Part shown: positions 7,619 through 16,365 of the stretch, one piece after another | Numbering within the stretch: position 1 is the first letter of the stretch | Layout: every line of letters begins with the position of its first letter | NCBI GenBank assembly: GCA_025454635.1 | Contig: JALOOB010000002.1 | Location: 1 to 42,487, forward strand | Source: Anaerolineae bacterium | Lineage (GTDB): Bacteria > Chloroflexota > Anaerolineae > CG2-30-64-16 | Direction: 5' to 3' | DNA length: 42,487 nt | The notes under the pieces: generated by a model | The model's input: the letters and a program-made list of their open reading frames with translations, nothing else | Databases searched by the model: none | What the model was told of the DNA's origin: nothing | Made by a program: the position numbers and the translations under genes

Positions 7619-8971
7619 TTAGACGTCGAAGGTCACGCGCGCTTCCCAGCCCGCCTCGGTGCGGCGCACGCGCAAATCGTGATAAGTCACGGCTTTGATG
7701 GCCGTGTGCGCGGGCGTGCCTTTGTGCCCGTACGCGACCCCGCGAATTCCCCGCTCGCTGAGCTCGTAGATCTCGAAGCGGGTGTGCATTTCGCCGCCCA
7801 ACTCCTGCCCCAGCAGCAGGCGGTTCAGCCACGCAACGAGCAGCTCCTCGAAGCCTTCGGCGTCCGCGCTGATTGCGCGGGCGACAGTCACCGGCTGCGC
7901 CGCGTCCGCGTCCTGTAGCGCGTACATGGCGGCGGCCGCGTTGGCGAATAGCCCCCGCTCGTCCTCGCCCGTCACGTCGATGGCCCAGTCTGCGGTGTGA
8001 ACCAACTCGCGCCAGGCGCCTTCTTCCGGCCGCTGCGCGTCTGTCGGCGGCGACGCCAGGATGCGGCGGGCAGTTTCTGCGTCCGTGGTGATCTGCGCGA
8101 CCAGTTCGTCGATGCTGGTGAATTTCTTCTCCCCGCGCAGCCGCGCGACAAAGCTCAAGCCAAGAACCTCGCCGTACAGGTTGCCGGAGAAGTCGAGCAG
8201 GTAGGCCTCGATGGAGGGATGGCCGTTGTCGAAGCTCGGGCGGACGCCGACGTTCACCACAGCTGGACAGCCGGTGTCGCCTCGCCACGCCCAACAAGCA
8301 TACACGCCGTAGGCTGGCGTGAGCCGTTCCTGTGGGAGCAGCAAATTGGCGGTTGGGAAGCCGAGCGTGCGCCCTCGCTGCGCGCCGAGCACGACTTTGC
8401 CCCACACCCGGTACGGCCGCCCCAGCAGGTCCGCCGCTTCCTCAACTGCGCCTTGCTCGCTCAGGAGAGTGCGAATGCGGCTGGAGCGCACCTGCTCCCC
8501 GCGCCACACGAACGGTGGCACGATGCGCAGGTCATAACCTAGCGCGCGGCCGAGCTCCGCGAGCCGCTCCGTGTTGCCCTCGCGGCCCTTGCCGAGCGCG
8601 AAGTCCGGCCCGACCCACAACTCGCGCAGCGGCAGATGTCGGGTGAGCTGCGCGAGGAAGTCCGCGGCAGGGGTGGCGGCGGTGTCGCGGGTGAATGGAT
8701 GCGCAACGACGAAGTCGAGGCCGAGCGCGGCCAGCAGATCGGTGCGTTCCTCGTTCGTCGTCAGGCGGGCGGTCTTGAGTTCGGGGCGGAGCACCGCAAC
8801 CGGATGCGGCTCGAAGGTGAGCAGCCCGGCGCGGCCCCCTGCGGTGTGCGCGGCAGCGGCCAGCTCGCCAATGAGCATCTGGTGCCCGCGATGCACGCCG
8901 TCGAAGTTGCCGATCGCCAGGTAGACCGGGCCGTCAAGAGGTGGGCTGGGGAAACCCTCGAAGACGTCCAT
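7619..8971 (-). CDS. ribF: bifunctional riboflavin kinase/FAD synthetase fused to archease
   Basis: A 450-residue single reading frame with two parts. Residues 1-306 are a complete RibF: the FMN adenylyltransferase site NFDGVHRGH (22-30), SSRIR (163-167), the flavokinase motif GRTLGFPTANL (200-210), and the normal RibF ending FTSIDELVAQI. After a linker of about 10 residues, 318-450 form a whole archease domain: HTAD (325-328), LLVAWLNRLL, the signature AIKAVTYHDLRV (424-435) and the terminal acidic residue in FDV. Archease activates the RNA ligase RtcB. RibF makes FMN and FAD. The ATG at 8971 overlaps the truB stop by one base, so it closes the nusA operon. The joint is continuous in frame with no stop or start needed between the parts. 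Confidence 0.92.
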   Translation of the reverse strand: MDVFEGFPSPPLDGPVYLAIGNFDGVHRGHQMLIGELAAAAHTAGGRAGLLTFEPHPVAVLRPELKTARLTTNEERTDLLAALGLDFVVAHPFTRDTAATPAADFLAQLTRHLPLRELWVGPDFALGKGREGNTERLAELGRALGYDLRIVPPFVWRGEQVRSSRIRTLLSEQGAVEEAADLLGRPYRVWGKVVLGAQRGRTLGFPTANLLLPQERLTPAYGVYACWAWRGDTGCPAVVNVGVRPSFDNGHPSIEAYLLDFSGNLYGEVLGLSFVARLRGEKKFTSIDELVAQITTDAETARRILASPPTDAQRPEEGAWRELVHTADWAIDVTGEDERGLFANAAAAMYALQDADAAQPVTVARAISADAEGFEELLVAWLNRLLLGQELGGEMHTRFEIYELSERGIRGVAYGHKGTPAHTAIKAVTYHDLRVRRTEAGWEARVTFDV

Positions 8972-9883: not shown

Positions 9884-9950
9884 ACAAACACAAAGATACA
9901 AAGTCACAAGGAAGACTATGTTGCCATCGTGTCTTTGTGTCTTGGTGTTG
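9884..9950. repeat. imperfect inverted repeat between truB and nrnA
   Basis: The left arm (about 9884-9907, containing ACACAAAGATACAAAG) and right arm (about 9929-9950, containing GTGTCTTTGTGTCTTGGTG) are imperfect reverse complements and share the CACAAAGACAC core with the perfect hairpin at 7567-7612. The right arm runs through the stop and last codons of nrnA. Confidence 0.6.
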
Positions 9951-10938
9951 ACGACGAGCTCAGGCTCGCGGCATGAACAAGCGGCAGCACGCGCGCCTGC
10001 GCATCGGCCAGCGGGCCGGTCAGCAGGCAGCCGGCTGCCTGCGGATGTCCGCCGCCGCCGAGGCTCAACGCGACTGTTGCGACGTCGTAACCCGGCCGCG
10101 ACCGGAAGTCCACCTCGATGCGACCGTCCGCCAGCTCGTTGAAGACCACGGCGACCCGCGCCTCGGCCGCGTTGATGAGCTGGCTGACCAGCCCGCCGTC
10201 GTCCTCGTCCAGGATGCCCGCAGCCTCGCGCATCGCCTTTGTGACTTCCGCCCACAAGACATAACCGTCAAGATGCGCCCGCTCGAACGCCATGCCCCAC
10301 AGCCGCATGTGCTTGAAGGGACGGGTGGCAAGCGTTCGTTGGCTTACGTCGGCCAGATTCGCGCCGGCCTCAATGAGGCGGACGGCAGCGGCCAGCTCGG
10401 CCGCGGTGACGTTGCTCGTGCGGAAGCCGAGCGTGTCGGTCACGAGGCCGACGAGCAGGGGCGTGGCCGCTTCCTTCGGCAGGGGCACGCCAAGCGCGTC
10501 CGCGAGCGCGATGACAAGCTGGCTTGTCGAAGCCGCTTCGGGCGCGACATAGTTCAGGTTGCCGAAGTGCAGGTTGGTGATGTGGTGGTCGACGACGATC
10601 AGTGGGGTCGGCGTGAACGCGAGGTTCGAGAAGATGGCGCCCAGCCGCGCCGGATCGCTCGCGTCGAGCGAGACAACAAGGTCGGGCTGGAAGCCCTCGG
10701 GCAGCGCGTTGACGATGCGCTCGACGCCGGGCACGAAGAACAGGGATTCCGGCGGGCGGTCCTGGCACGCCAGGACGACGGCGCGCTCGCCGGGCAGAGC
10801 GTCCAGAACGTACCCCAGCCCGAGCAGCGACCCGATTGCGTCGCCGTCTGGGTTGACGTGGCAGAACGCCACGAGGGACGCGGCCCCCATGATGGGGGCC
10901 ACGAGGTCACTCAGATTCGCGCTGTTCGGCGTCGGCAT
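9916..10938 (-). CDS. nrnA: DHH-family phosphoesterase, NrnA-like nano-RNase/pAp phosphatase
   Basis: A 340-residue DHH/DHHA1 protein expected to degrade short oligoribonucleotides and dephosphorylate pAp. The start is placed at the ATG at 10938 (MPTPNSANLSDLV) because homologues begin about 20 residues before the first motif; this start lies 32 bases inside rbfA. Visible metal-binding motifs are CHVNPDGDA (H27, D31, D33), SLDASDP, VVDHH (the DHH motif) and, in the DHHA1 domain, the nucleotide-binding GGGGHPQAAGC. The last ten or so residues (TPRHKDTMAT) are encoded by the flanking repeat and are unlikely to be ancestral. It sits in the usual place between rbfA and truB. Confidence 0.92.
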   Translation of the reverse strand: MPTPNSANLSDLVAPIMGAASLVAFCHVNPDGDAIGSLLGLGYVLDALPGERAVVLACQDRPPESLFFVPGVERIVNALPEGFQPDLVVSLDASDPARLGAIFSNLAFTPTPLIVVDHHITNLHFGNLNYVAPEAASTSQLVIALADALGVPLPKEAATPLLVGLVTDTLGFRTSNVTAAELAAAVRLIEAGANLADVSQRTLATRPFKHMRLWGMAFERAHLDGYVLWAEVTKAMREAAGILDEDDGGLVSQLINAAEARVAVVFNELADGRIEVDFRSRPGYDVATVALSLGGGGHPQAAGCLLTGPLADAQARVLPLVHAASLSSSSTPRHKDTMAT

Positions 10939-11335
10939 GGTGATCCTGTCCCGGCGCTTGCGCGGCCGCCCGCTCGGCGGATTTTCGCTCCGCAGCGATC
11001 TGATCGAGGATGTCGTCCACATGCGAGGCGCGCTTCTCTGTGTCGTCTACGACGAAGTGCAACTCGGGCACCACGCGCAGGTGAAGGTTCTCCACCAGCG
11101 CGCGGCGCAGGAACGTGGTCGAGTGCTGCAATGCGCTCAGCACGTGGCGCGTCTGCGAATCGGGCAGCGCGTGCTGGATAAACACGCGCGCGTTGCCCAA
11201 ATCCGCCGAAACCTGCACGTCCGTGACGGTGACCATCGCGTCTTCCAGTCGCGGATCGGTTAGTTCGCTGCCAATGAGAAGCCCAAGCTCCTCAGTTAAC
11301 ACCTCGGCAATGCGTTCTTGCCGGCGAGAAGTCAT
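10907..11335 (-). CDS. rbfA: 30S ribosome-binding factor RbfA
   Basis: A KH-type cold-shock factor that binds immature 30S subunits and helps 16S rRNA maturation. The product is 142 residues: the N-terminus RRQERIAEVLTEELGLLI and the core DPRLEDAMVTVTDVQVSADLG and LVENLHLRVVPELHF are typical of the family, here cited in parts. The C-terminal 25 residues are charged and low in complexity. The ATG at 11335 shares one base with the infB stop (TAATG), and the 3' end overlaps nrnA, so infB, rbfA and nrnA are coupled. Confidence 0.95.
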   Translation of the reverse strand: MTSRRQERIAEVLTEELGLLIGSELTDPRLEDAMVTVTDVQVSADLGNARVFIQHALPDSQTRHVLSALQHSTTFLRRALVENLHLRVVPELHFVVDDTEKRASHVDDILDQIAAERKSAERAAAQAPGQDHHADAEQRESE

Positions 11336-13947
11336 TACAGCACCCGTTCCTTCTTGTAGGCCTCCAGCACGTCGCCCGTCTCGAAGTCATGGAAGTTGTG
11401 CAGGTGGATGCCGCACTCGAATCCTGTCTTGACCTCGGGGACGTCCTCCTGGAACCGCTTCAACGCGGCGATCTTGTCCTCGGCGATCACCTCGCCCGCG
11501 CGCTTCACCCGAACCGGGGAGTTGCGCTGGATCTCGCCGTCCAGGATATAGCAGCCGGCCACCTTGCCGACCTTCGACACCCGGAAGACCTGGCGAATTT
11601 CCGCATGGCCCGTGACGACTTCCTTATACACGGGCTCCAACATCCCCTGGAGCGCCTTCTGCACGTCCTCAATGATGTTGTAGATGATGTTGTAGATGCG
11701 AATGTCGATGCCTTCGGCCTCGGCCATCTTCTGCGCGCCGCCGTCCGCAACGACGGAGAAGCCGACGACGATGGCGTGCGACGCGACCGCGAGCATGACG
11801 TCCGACTCGCTGATGTTGCCCGTGCCCTGGTGCAGAATCTTCACCTTCAGCTTGTCCGTGCTGAGCTTTTCGAGCGAGTTCACGATCGGCTCGATGGACC
11901 CCTGCACGTCCGCCTTCAGGATCAAGTTGAGTTCCTTCACCTGGCCCGCTTCAGCCGCAGCGAAGATGCTCTCCAGCGTGCGCGCCGGCGCCGGGCCTGC
12001 GGCCGCCTTCTTGGCAAGCTGCCGTTCGGATGCAATCCCCCGCGCGGTCCGGTCGTCCGCAACCACCTTGAACGTTTCGCCAGCAACCGGCACGTCGGAG
12101 AAGCCCAGGATCTGCACCGGCCTCGCGGGCTTGGCCTCCGTTATCGGCTCGCCCTTGTCATCATACATGGCGCGAATCTTGGCGTAAGTTTCCCCGCTCA
12201 CGATGCTGTCGCTCACGTGGAGCGTGCCGTTCTGGACCAGCAAGGTCGCCATCGGGCCGCGCTGCTTGTCGAGCCGGCTCTCGATGACCGTGCCCACGCA
12301 GTCGCCTTTCGGGTTTGCTGTCTGCGGGTCGACGTCGGCCAGGAGCAGGATGCTCTCGAGCAGGTCATCGATGCCGCGGCGCATCTTGGCCGAAACCGGG
12401 ACGCACATGACGTCGCCGCCGTACTCTTCGATGAGCACGCCGTTGTCCGCCAGCTCCTGCTTGACCCGGTCCGGGTTAGCCTGCGCCTTGTCGATCTTGT
12501 TCAGCGCCACGATGATCGGCACTTGGGCCGCTTTGACGTGCGCGATCGCCTCTTTTGTCTGCGGCATGACGCCGTCGTCCGCGGCCACCACCACGATGGC
12601 GATGTCGGTCACCTGGGCGCCGCGCGCGCGCATGGCCGTAAACGCCTCATGGCCGGGTGTGTCGAGGAACGTGATCTTGCGCCCGTTAATCTCGACCTGG
12701 TACGCGCCGATGTGCTGCGTGATGCCGCCCGCTTCGCCTTCGACCACGCGCGTCTCGCGGATCGCATCGAGCAGGGTGGTCTTGCCGTGGTCGACATGGC
12801 CGAGCACAACGACGACCGGCGGGCGAACCTCCATGTCCTCCGCCTTCTCCTGCGCCAGGATGCGCTGTCGCAACGTCTGCGGCGCAGCCTCGGGCTCGGC
12901 GGCCACTTCGGGCTCGGGCGCCTTTTCGCGGTTGACCGCAATGCCAAGTTCTTCGCCGATGAGCGCAGCCGTGTCGTAGTCGATGGACTCGGTGATGGTG
13001 ACCATCATGCCGTAATTCATCAGGGTCTTGATGACCTCGATCGGGCTCTTCCGCATCTTCTCGGCGAGATCGCGAATCGTGATCGTGTCGCCGATGACCA
13101 GCTCCGTTACAGCCGCCTGGGCTGCCGCAGTGGGCCGGGCCGCGCCGGTGAGGGGCGGCGGCGCAAGGCGTTCGCCGGGTGGCAACTGAGCCTGACGCGA
13201 CTTGCCCTGCGGCCGACGCTGGTTGTTGCCGCCCGGACGGTTGCCGCCCGACGGACCCCCGCCGGTGCGCTGTTGCGGGCCGGTCCGTTGCGGGCCGCCG
13301 CGATCCGGCGCGCCGAATCCGCCGCCACCGCTCGGCGCGCCACCGCCGCCACCGCCGTAACCGCCGCCCGGGCGGCCCTGCGAGGGTCCACGGTTCTGAC
13401 CGCCGTAGCCCCCTTGGGGGCCACCACCACCACCGCCGCCGCCACCACCACTGTAACCGCCACCGGGCCGGCCCTGTGAGGGACCGCGGTTCTGTCCGCC
13501 GTAGCCGCCCGCCGGCCGCGGGCCGCTGGGCGCGGGGCGTCCGCGTGGAACGACTGTGTCCTCGGACGTGGGGTCGAAGACGCGTTGGTTGAACACCTCG
13601 TCATCGCCCCCCTGGTTTGGCTGCCCGCCCGGCCGGTTGCCGGGGCGAGTCTCGCCGGGACGCGAAGGCGCGGGGCTGCGATTGCCGTCCGGCGCGGAGC
13701 CGGGCTTGGCCCCCGGGGCCGATGGTTTGGCAAAGGAGGGCGTTTTGGGCTGCCGGCTCGCATCGTTGCGCTGGCCGTTTTCCGCCGGCTTGCTCCCTGG
13801 GCGCGCCGCCTGGTCAGGCGTCTGTGGTCGCCCTTGGCCCTGGCCGGCAGGTCGCGCCTGCGGCTGGCGCGGTGTATTCTGGTTCTGGGTTTCGTTTTCA
13901 GTCGAGGCCCCGCTGGGCTGCTCGGCTTTCGGGTTGTCGTTCGCCAT
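11335..13947 (-). CDS. infB: translation initiation factor IF-2
   Basis: GTPase that places initiator tRNA on the 30S subunit; 870 residues. The start at 13947 has AAGGAGG a few bases upstream. Residues 1-270 are a disordered region rich in Gly, Pro, Arg, Gln and Asn with a tandem 19-residue repeat at 147-165 and 179-197. An IF2-N module follows (about 282-336, [20 protein letters not shown]), then the G domain from about 378 with GHVDHGKT (383-390), DTPGHEA and NKID, and the C-terminal beta-barrel domains ending near [12 protein letters not shown]. The position after ylxR and before rbfA is standard. Confidence 0.97.
13357..13509 (-). repeat. tandem protein repeat within infB
   Basis: Two copies of the 19-residue unit [19 protein letters not shown] are encoded at 13453-13509 and 13357-13413, 96 bases apart, with a run of glycines between. 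The amino-acid units are identical while many third codon positions differ (for example CGAGGGTCC against TGAGGGACC on the + strand). This suggests an old duplication kept at the protein level. Confidence 0.85.
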
Positions 13948-14126
13948 TCATCATCCTCCTTGAGCCGCCCGCGAGGCGCAGAGTTCGTTCTGGGCGAAGT
14001 CCAGAGACGACGCGCGGTCAACCAGCCGGGCGTAAGCCGGGGCTGGGGGGCAAGCCGATTCCTATTCACGGTCAAACCACGGGGGAAGGACAGGGGGACG
14101 TTCAGGGAGGGAGGGGGTTTATGCCA

Positions 14127-14207
14127 CTACTTACGCATAAGGCCTTCCTCGGAGCGTCGGGTTCCTTCGCCCATCGGTTGTGTTAGCGGTCGCGTGGCCG
14201 CTACCAT
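14127..14207 (-). CDS. possible 26-residue leader peptide before infB
   Basis: An ATG at 14207 follows AGGAG at a spacing of six bases and opens a 26-codon frame ending in TAG, reading MVAATRPLTQPMGEG and then RRSEEGLMRK after one Thr. The ribosome-binding site is good, but the peptide resembles nothing recognised and lacks hydrophobic or regulatory-peptide features. It may be chance within a non-coding leader. Confidence 0.2.
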   Translation of the reverse strand: MVAATRPLTQPMGEGTRRSEEGLMRK

Positions 14208-14221
14208 GAGTTGCTCCTGTT

Positions 14222-14246
14222 GTGGCGCAAGTAGACCTTGCGCCAC
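14222..14246. repeat. short palindrome after ylxR (relative of the thyA-leader element)
   Basis: GTGGCGCAAG (14222-14231) and CTTGCGCCAC (14237-14246) are exact reverse complements with a 5-nt loop. The GCGCAAG core and spacing resemble the palindrome at 6723-6751. It begins four bases beyond the ylxR stop codon. Confidence 0.6.
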
Positions 14247-14250
14247 GTCA

Positions 14251-14559
14251 TTATTCCTCCGGCAGCGTCTCAGCGTATGCCTTCAACGCTGTCGTGTCTT
14301 CCGCTGTCAAACTTGTCTTCAGCGCCGTATTCAGACGCTGCGTGAAGCCGGGAACGTTCCAGCAGTCCCGCGCTTTGCACAAATAAGCGCCCCGGCCTGC
14401 GGCCTTGCCGGTTGGATCCACGTGGACTTCGCCGGCTGGCGTCCGCACGATGCGCACCAGCTCCCGCTTGCCCCGTTCCGACCGGCAGACAACGCATGTC
14501 CGCTGCGGCACGTGTTTGGGGCGCGGCCCCTTCGGCTTGGAGGCTTGCCCCGATGGCAT
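14251..14559 (-). CDS. ylxR: YlxR family RNA-binding protein (RnpM)
   Basis: A 102-residue basic protein with the family motifs PQRTCVVCR (18-26) and GRGAYLC (55-61). YlxR proteins sit between nusA and infB in many bacteria, and in Bacillus subtilis the protein (RnpM) was reported to bind and modulate RNase P. The ATG at 14559 lies three bases after the nusA stop. The N-terminus is Lys/Pro-rich and the C-terminus is slightly longer than the typical 90 residues. Confidence 0.92.
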   Translation of the reverse strand: MPSGQASKPKGPRPKHVPQRTCVVCRSERGKRELVRIVRTPAGEVHVDPTGKAAGRGAYLCKARDCWNVPGFTQRLNTALKTSLTAEDTTALKAYAETLPEE

Positions 14560-14562
14560 GGC

Positions 14563-16206
14563 CTAGTATTCCACGTCGCCCCAGCCGCCGCGGCCCGGCT
14601 TGCGCTTGCGCCGCGCAACCACCTCGCCCAGGTCCTCGTCGAAGACCAGCTCGCGCTTCTTAGTGTCCTTCTTAACCTTCTTCGCCGGGGCCTTCTTCCC
14701 TGCGCCGCCCTCTTCCTCGTCTTCGATCAATTCGTCGTCCACGAAGGCTTCGGGCACGAGGAACTGCTCACCCGCGTCGCCCATGCTCTGGGGCTCGGGC
14801 TCTGCCGGCGCGACCTCCGCCGGCCCAGGCTCGGCGGCGACCTCTTCTTCCTCAACGGCGGGCGCAACGGCTTCCGCAACTTCAGGAGCGGCGGCTTCGG
14901 CCTCGACCATCTCAGTTTCGGGCTGGGCCTCTGCCTCTTCTTCGATTTGCGGCAGGTCGGGCCGGTTCTGATCGGCCTGCGCCAGCAAGCGAGCGGCCGT
15001 TTCCAGAGTGGCCTGCGTCTTGTCGCGTTCGCGCAGCAGCCATTCCGCGCGGCTGAGGAGGTCGTCGCCCGCGGGCAGCGCCGCGGCCTTGTCCTGCAGC
15101 GAGCGCTGGCGGATCATCTGCATCTGCTGCCGCTTAATCTCGGCCAGGCCCTCGGTCGCAGCCTCGGTCTCGCTCTTGATGTCGATGCGCCAACCGGTCA
15201 GCTTGGCCGCAAGGCGCGCATTCTGGCCTTCCTTGCCAATGGCGAGCGAGAGCTGGCGGTCAGGCACCACTACGATAGCGGTGCGGATATCGCCTTCTTC
15301 GATCAGGATCGTATCGGTCGGCTTGGCGGGGCTGAGCGCGTTGCTAATGAAGCTGCGCACGTCAGCAGACCATTCGACCACGTCGATCTTCTCGCCGTTC
15401 AGTTCGTCCACGATGTTCTGGATGCGTGTGCCGCGCAGGCCGACACAGGAGCCGACGGGATCGACGCCGGGCTGGCTGGCGGAGACGGCTACCTTCGAGC
15501 GCTGGCCCGGTTCGCGAGCGATGCTCTTGATTTCGACCGTGCCGCTGTAAATTTCGGGGATTTCGCGCTCGAGCAGGCGGCGTAGCATATTGCGATGTGT
15601 GCGCGACAGGCGAATCTGAGGCCCCCGCGTGCCCTTGTTGATCTCTGCGAGCAGCGTGCGGACGTTCATGCCCACGCGGTAGCGGTCGTTCGGAAGTTGG
15701 TCTTCCGCCGCAATGATGCCCTCGGCCTTCTTGCTGAGCGTGACCGTCACCGCGTTGCTGCGGTAGTCGATCGACTGCACCTGGCCGGTGATCAGTTCGC
15801 CTTCGCGCTGCTTGTAGAAATCGAACAGCTGGTCACGCTCTGCCTCATGGATGCGCTGGAGAATGACCTGTTTGGCCGTCTGCGCGGCAATGCGGCCGAA
15901 ATCCGCCGGCTCGCGGTGGTCGATGACCGTGCTGCCAAGTTCCGCGTCCTTGTCCAGCTTGCGGGCCTCGGGCAGGCCGATTTCGACCGCGGGATCCTCG
16001 ACCTTTTCAACCACGGTCTTCTCGCAGGAAATGCTGAGGTCGCCCGTGTTCGGATCGATGGTTGCTTGGACGTTGGCCGTGGCGTTGGCGTAATTGCGCC
16101 GGTAGGCGTGGACCAATGCTTCCTCGATGGCTCCCAGGATCGTCTCGCGCGGCAACTCTTTCTCCGCGCAGATCTGGTTGACAGCCATGATCAGCTCTTT
16201 GCTCAT
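14563..16206 (-). CDS. nusA: transcription termination/antitermination factor NusA
   Basis: Binds RNA polymerase and nascent RNA to control pausing, termination and antitermination. The start is the ATG at 16206 ([20 protein letters not shown]) behind AAGGAA; upstream in-frame sequence is leader RNA. The 547-residue product has the polymerase-binding N-domain (1-125), an S1 domain (about 135-200), and two KH domains (about 225-290 with [15 protein letters not shown], and 295-345 with [18 protein letters not shown]). The C-terminal 150 residues are Glu/Ala/Pro-rich, ending in a Lys/Arg-rich segment, and are not conserved. It leads the operon; rimP, often just upstream, is absent here. Confidence 0.96.
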
Positions 16207-16281
16207 TTCCTTCGTTCTCTCCCGCAAAATGCCCACCGGCCTGACGCCGGGTTTGTTCCGTTCCGGGACCCTTACAACAAA

Positions 16282-16306
16282 GAAAGCCGGGGGGTTCCCG
16301 ACTTTC
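16282..16306 (-). terminator. hairpin in the nusA leader, attenuator-like
   Basis: On the - strand GAAAGTCGGG and CCCGGCTTTC pair over ten positions (one G-U) around a 5-nt loop and are followed by TTTGTTGT. It lies between the nusA promoter and start codon, so it would end or pause transcription of the leader. The T-run is imperfect, and the sequence is also reminiscent of the AGAAACC-type repeats, so function is uncertain. Confidence 0.5.
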
Positions 16307-16336
16307 CGCAGAAGAGTGCCTGAAGCTAATGTCAAG

Positions 16337-16365
16337 ATAATAGCATAGCTTTGCAGAAGGGTCAA
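16337..16365 (-). promoter_or_regulatory. sigma-70-type promoter of the nusA operon
   Basis: On the - strand TTGACC (16360-16365) and TATTAT (16337-16342) are 17 bases apart. Transcription would start near 16330, giving a leader of about 125 nt that includes the hairpin at 16282-16306. Confidence 0.7.

What the first reader, a model, noticed from the sequence alone, without database searches (positions are those of the whole stretch)
7619..8971. RibF fused in frame to a complete archease domain
One uninterrupted frame encodes a full-length RibF (residues 1-306, all FMN adenylyltransferase and flavokinase motifs present) and then a full archease (318-450) with HTAD, AIKAVTYHDL and the terminal acidic residue. 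Archease is the activator of the RNA ligase RtcB (established knowledge); RibF makes FAD. I know of no described link between flavin synthesis and RtcB-dependent RNA repair. The gene is the last of a nusA-infB-truB operon, so the fusion places an RNA-ligase cofactor under the control of the translation machinery genes. It might be a simple fusion of neighbours, or a way to tie RNA repair to flavin or nucleotide state.
Basis: partly seen in the sequence, partly recalled or inferred. Interest (0 to 1): 0.85.

Follow-up and report, generated by a model that had tools for sequence, protein, structure and literature searches.

The report
Flavin enzyme fused to RNA-ligase activator
In one class of Chloroflexota bacteria, the gene for the enzyme that makes FAD has repeatedly merged with its neighbour, the gene for archease (the helper that switches on the RNA ligase RtcB); the fusion is real and apparently undescribed, but the evidence points to two independent proteins sharing one chain, not to a new flavin-controlled RNA repair system.

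Summary
The fusion is real. One open frame on the MINUS strand (8971 to 7619, 450 aa) encodes a complete RibF (FAD_syn 14-165, Flavokinase 183-305) and a complete archease (320-450), all over Pfam cut-offs. It is not an assembly accident: 33 other Anaerolineae genomes carry it, and two more have FMN-adenylyltransferase::archease with the riboflavin-kinase part eroded. In 31 further genomes ribF and archease are separate neighbours, often overlapping by 4 bases. Archease is usually followed by rtcB. In the tree, fused and unfused states interchange at least 10 times, and a single fused clade is strongly rejected: recurrent merging of translationally coupled neighbours. The archease half looks functional: the essential His, two Asp, Lys and the free C-terminal carboxylate are kept, purifying selection matches the RibF half, and archease tracks canonical RtcB (106/109 versus 1/41 genomes). 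The halves decay independently: one lineage without rtcB has a ruined archease and intact RibF; others lost flavokinase motifs yet keep archease. This argues against an obligate flavin-RNA-repair link. The 'translation operon' position is simply RibF's usual place. No fusion was seen in the genomes sampled outside Anaerolineae. A new domain architecture of known proteins; function inferred, not assayed.

The parts
7619..8971 (-). ribF::archease fusion gene, 450 aa, ATG 8971-8969, stop 7621-7619
   Evidence: AlphaFold2 mean pLDDT 92.3, pTM 0.90
8477..8932 (-). FMN adenylyltransferase (FAD_syn) domain, residues 14-165; GNFDGVHRGH and VRSSRIR motifs kept
   Evidence: Pfam PF06574 3e-40; motif table
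8057..8425 (-). riboflavin kinase domain, residues 183-305; GFPTAN and catalytic-Glu (SIEAYLLDF) motifs kept
   Evidence: Pfam PF01687 1.4e-41; one search gives the same coordinates
8015..8056 (-). linker of 14 residues (306-319) between the two proteins; no ATG and no Shine-Dalgarno; the only nearby start-like codon is a TTG just inside archease (E-L-V-H-T-A-D)
7622..8014 (-). archease domain, residues 320-450; H325, D328, K426, D449 and C-terminal V450 match the essential H9, D12, K117, D141, I142 of P. horikoshii archease
   Evidence: Pfam PF01951 2.1e-26; residue table; PMC3973293
8971..9891 (-). truB, directly upstream; its TGA shares its A with the ribF ATG
9916..16365 (-). rest of the operon: nrnA-type DHH phosphoesterase, rbfA, infB, ylxR-like ORF, nusA
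   Evidence: names by resemblance; not tested against family libraries

Best explanation
A recurrent gene fusion of two adjacent, translationally coupled genes. In Anaerolineae the ancient archease-rtcB pair came to lie directly behind ribF, the last gene of the nusA-infB-rbfA-nrnA-truB-ribF operon. Small frame changes at overlapping stop/start junctions then joined ribF and archease several times (recurrence shown by the tree; the frame changes are inferred). The product is a RibF that makes FMN and FAD, joined by a short linker to an archease that supplies the third metal site (two Asp plus the free C-terminal carboxylate) for guanylylation of RtcB, which is encoded elsewhere in most of these genomes (enzyme roles inferred from conserved residues and co-occurrence). 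The two activities probably do not regulate each other. The effect is shared expression and, in this lineage, a tethered archease as the only one found in the genome.
For: Complete domains. 34 fused, 2 FMNAT::archease and 31 adjacent-unfused genomes; no fusion and no ribF adjacency in 20 further genomes (17 outside the class; in one of these, G403, the contig ends too near to judge adjacency). Many unfused neighbours overlap by 4 or 11-32 bases, and in G078 only a stop codon separates them. At least 10 state changes; one fused clade rejected, p-AU 1.4e-63. Last Asp plus exactly one further residue in 33/34 fused proteins; D12 and K117 in 33/34 (roles). dN/dS of the archease half 0.09-0.31, like the RibF half. 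Canonical RtcB in 106/109 archease-positive and 1/41 archease-negative genomes (Fisher 1e-31). rtcB directly downstream of the fused gene in 9 genomes. Independent decay: G025 has no RtcB (97% complete) and a ruined archease with intact RibF; G004 and f12 (fused), f42 and G031 (unfused) have lost flavokinase motifs with archease intact.
Against: No biochemistry or expression data. In family f1 and others the fusion is kept although rtcB lies elsewhere, and the fusion recurred, which could hint at selection for the joined protein. AlphaFold2 gives a confident overall fold (pTM 0.90); interdomain contacts were not examined and could matter. The FMN adenylyltransferase half is intact in every complete fused protein, so a link between that half and archease is dissociated in one direction only (G025, and RibF without archease).
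Confidence: 0.8

Rival explanations
1. Functional coupling: tethering archease to the FAD maker links RtcB activation to flavin or redox state, for example by a bacterial counterpart of FAD-dependent protection of the RtcB active-site cysteine.
For: A flavin-RtcB link exists in metazoa (PYROXD1, mutually exclusive with archease). Fusion is recurrent and present where rtcB lies elsewhere.
Against: 31 genomes keep the genes unfused side by side. Flavokinase or archease can decay without the other. PYROXD1 is a flavoprotein oxidoreductase; RibF only synthesises the cofactor, so the analogy is weak. Archease-positive genomes sampled outside the class have archease away from ribF.
Confidence: 0.08
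2. The fused archease domain no longer serves RtcB and has been recruited to RibF, as a structural or regulatory appendix.
For: No RtcB found in the window's own genome; archease scores in f1 are lower than in most unfused relatives.
Against: The MAG is 77% complete and all 9 family members have RtcB. Residues needed for RtcB activation, including the C-terminal carboxylate, are kept, and the one near-complete genome without RtcB lost them (G025).
Confidence: 0.05
3. The fusion is translated, but a separate archease is also made from an internal start, so the joined chain matters little.
For: Some fused lineages keep an in-frame ATG with a Shine-Dalgarno-like motif before archease (G017, G083, G125, G026).
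Against: In the window only a TTG without Shine-Dalgarno lies at the start of archease; no start is conserved in family f1.
Confidence: 0.06
4. Artefact: frameshift or misassembly joins two genes.
For: The genome is a fragmented MAG of 549 contigs.
Against: Same architecture in 33 other assemblies across 13 family-level groups (14 with f12), with conserved residues on both sides of the joint and purifying selection.
Confidence: 0.01

Closest known systems
RibF, bifunctional riboflavin kinase/FMN adenylyltransferase (C. ammoniagenes FAD synthetase, T. maritima TM379)
   Same: Residues 1-308 match end to end, 4.9e-43 to 4uze; all motifs kept
   Different: Carries a linker and archease, 144 residues in all, at the C-terminus
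Archease (MTH1598/TM1083 family; P. horikoshii 4n2p, human 8btx/8odo)
   Same: Residues 320-450; essential residues and C-terminal carboxylate position kept; fold matched by Foldseek
   Different: Not a free 16-kDa protein: tethered at its N-terminus to RibF
The archease-rtcB tRNA-splicing operon of bacteria and archaea (Desai et al. 2014, PMC3973293)
   Same: archease directly before rtcB in most Chloroflexota sampled, including 9 genomes with a fused gene
   Different: Here archease has been joined to ribF, and in the window's family rtcB lies elsewhere
PYROXD1-RTCB protection in metazoa (PMC12263435)
   Same: The only flavin-RtcB link found in the literature held
   Different: A flavoprotein oxidoreductase binds RTCB; no flavin-synthesising enzyme and no fusion is involved

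Membership tests
RibF (TIGR00083) | FMN adenylyltransferase and riboflavin kinase domains in this order, over curated cut-offs | tested here: met
   TIGR00083 236 bits vs cut-off 184; Pfam FAD_syn and Flavokinase over cut-off
RibF (TIGR00083) | GxFDGxHxGH and SSxxIR (adenylyltransferase), PTAN and catalytic Glu (kinase) | tested here: met
RibF (TIGR00083) | Riboflavin to FMN to FAD activity | not testable with these tools
   needs enzyme assay
Archease (PF01951) | Full-length match over the curated cut-off | tested here: met
   93.3 bits vs 25, profile 1-136; the NCBIfam equivalog PRK00407 matches below its own cut-off (58 vs 126 bits)
Archease (PF01951) | Metal site: two Asp plus free C-terminal carboxylate; His9 and Lys117 | tested here: met
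   H325, D328, K426, D449, V450 last; roles
Archease (PF01951) | Stimulates RtcB guanylylation | not testable with these tools
   co-occurrence with canonical RtcB supports it; assay needed
archease-rtcB operon | archease and rtcB adjacent | tested here: not met
   No RtcB in the 77%-complete genome; downstream of the gene lies a convergent thyA-like gene. Met in 9 other fused genomes

The most novel reading that the evidence does not exclude
Fusing archease to RibF couples RtcB activation to flavin or redox state (for example FMN/FAD binding by RibF gating archease), and this was selected repeatedly in Anaerolineae: the first link between flavin synthesis and RNA ligation.
Probability: 0.07. 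Interest if true: 0.8.

Novelty: new variant of a known kind. Interest (0 to 1): 0.4.

Why it matters
It shows that archease is kept, with all its essential residues, as the C-terminal part of an unrelated and probably essential enzyme. It also gives a clean set of natural experiments (fused, overlapping, adjacent, decayed) on how gene fusions arise from translationally coupled neighbours. It warns against reading a Rosetta-stone fusion as a functional link without checking for independent decay. If a coupling were found after all, it would connect cofactor metabolism with RNA repair.

Tried and rejected
Artefact at the joint: rejected by 33 other assemblies. Single ancient fusion: rejected by AU test. 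Second archease or flavokinase in the genome: none. Archaeal-type CTP-dependent riboflavin kinase to explain the flavokinase-less relatives: none in the five genomes searched. Archease on plasmids: no match. Literature: no held paper names archease together with riboflavin kinase or RibF. An early rtcB scan used a seed read on the wrong strand; corrected, and the rtcB marks are not used. Long open frames alone are poor evidence of fusion in G+C-rich DNA: G218 (460 aa) proved unfused.

Full report
What is there. The frame lies on the minus strand: ATG at 8971, stop at 7621-7619, 450 residues. Pfam finds FAD_syn at 14-165, Flavokinase at 183-305 and Archease at 320-450, each far above its cut-off; TIGR00083 (ribF) is also above its cut-off. 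Solved relatives are C. ammoniagenes FAD synthetase for residues 1-308 and P. horikoshii archease for 320-449. AlphaFold2, on an alignment of 31 fused proteins, gives mean pLDDT 92.3 and pTM 0.90. Foldseek matches the model to FAD synthetases and to archeases, including the human RTCB-archease complex.

Own genome. The assembly (G000, 4.55 Mb, 549 contigs, 77% complete) has one archease and one flavokinase, both in this gene, and no recognisable RtcB. All nine genomes of the same family have archease and RtcB, so the missing rtcB is most likely a gap in the MAG. The contig that carries the gene in one of those genomes (G001) has the length of a contig titled Chloroflexi bacterium ADurb.Bin325, and most other near relatives are titled Anaerolineae, so I place the window in class Anaerolineae (inference from record titles).

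Distribution. I fetched the region round archease in 108 genomes of the class with a usable archease and in 20 more. Of the first set, 34 (window included) have ribF and archease in one frame, two (family f12) have FMN adenylyltransferase and archease in one frame with only a remnant of the kinase, 31 have ribF and archease as separate neighbours in the same order, and the rest have archease elsewhere or at a contig edge. Counting f12, fused genes occur in 14 family-level groups. The 20 extra genomes came from other families, 17 of them outside the class: in none is archease fused to ribF or seen next to it (in G403 the contig ends too near to judge), and in 17 of the 20 rtcB follows archease.

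Origin. In the unfused neighbours the archease start often overlaps the ribF stop by 4 bases, by 1, or by 11-32 bases; in G078 the two are in one frame with only the stop between them. In a tree of RibF, archease and TruB, the fused state changes at least 10 times, at least 6 of them forced by well supported branches, and a single fused clade is rejected (p-AU 1.4e-63). The count cannot tell gain from loss, but the varied linkers (6-26 residues, unlike each other between families) and the remnants of archease start codons in some of them speak for repeated gain (inference). The archease-rtcB pair is the known operon (PMC3973293).

Is the archease half working? P. horikoshii archease needs H9, D12, K117, D141 and the last residue I142; its metal site is two Asp and the C-terminal carboxylate. 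In the human complex D51, D178 and the terminal carboxyl of I179 hold the third Mn ion. Archease must therefore end the chain. In 33 of 34 fused proteins the last Asp is followed by exactly one residue, and K117 and D12 are each kept in 33 (for D12 the exception, G143, is an assembly gap of N). H9 is replaced by Y or S in three members of family f15. In the window these residues are H325, D328, K426, D449 and V450. Nei-Gojobori dN/dS of the archease half is 0.09-0.31 in pairs that are not saturated, like that of the RibF halves. Canonical RtcB (more than 1.2 bits per aligned profile position, my criterion applied by eye) is present in 106 of 109 archease-positive and 1 of 41 archease-negative genomes. 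The three exceptions are G000 (77% complete), G093 (85%) and G025.

Are the halves linked? They decay independently. G025 (97% complete) has no RtcB; its RibF is intact, but its archease has lost H, K, the last Asp and the exact C-terminus, and Pfam gives it only 20 bits, below the cut-off. Conversely G004 and family f12 (fused), and most of f42 and G031 (unfused), have lost PTAN and other flavokinase motifs while their archease is intact; no other flavokinase was found in the genomes of G004 and f12. So archease follows RtcB, not the kinase. The FMN adenylyltransferase half is intact in all complete fused proteins, so a link between it and archease is not excluded, only not needed.

Literature. 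No held paper joins archease with riboflavin kinase or RibF; the library holds open-access papers only, so absence is not proof. That is not flavin synthesis.

Verdict. The fusion is real, recurrent and apparently undescribed: a new architecture of two known families. The best-supported mechanism is merging of coupled neighbours into one chain with two independent activities (0.8). Catalysis by both halves is inferred, not shown. A flavin-gated RtcB activation remains possible at about 0.07.

Noticed in passing
L210:1396-4449 (G001), L209:2390-5566 (G004), L115:1623-4613 (G019) and about 20 further genomes: RtcB of many Anaerolineae is split by an in-frame intein (Intein_splicing 9.5e-15, LAGLIDADG_3). 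It sits after GYDIN, so that the +1 residue is the conserved Cys that matches, by motif, the metal-binding and oxidation-sensitive C122 of human RTCB.
   Followed up: partly
L102 (G004), L116 (G020), L144 (G055), L126 (G031), L149/L168/L184/L196 (family f42): The riboflavin kinase half of RibF has lost the PTAN motif and/or the catalytic Glu, or most of the domain, while FMN adenylyltransferase motifs are intact; no other flavokinase was found in G004, G020, G055, nor a CTP-dependent one. The source of FMN is unknown.
   Followed up: partly
L121:1780-3111:- (G025): Fused archease decayed in a 97%-complete genome without RtcB: a natural loss-of-function control.
   Followed up: yes
G012, G028, G036, G049 and others: Archease-negative Anaerolineae carry divergent RtcB-family proteins (about 0.5-0.8 bits per profile position), presumably archease-independent.
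   Followed up: no
L201 (G143:C129): The archease half is interrupted by a run of N in the assembly, reported as two matches in one open frame.
   Followed up: no
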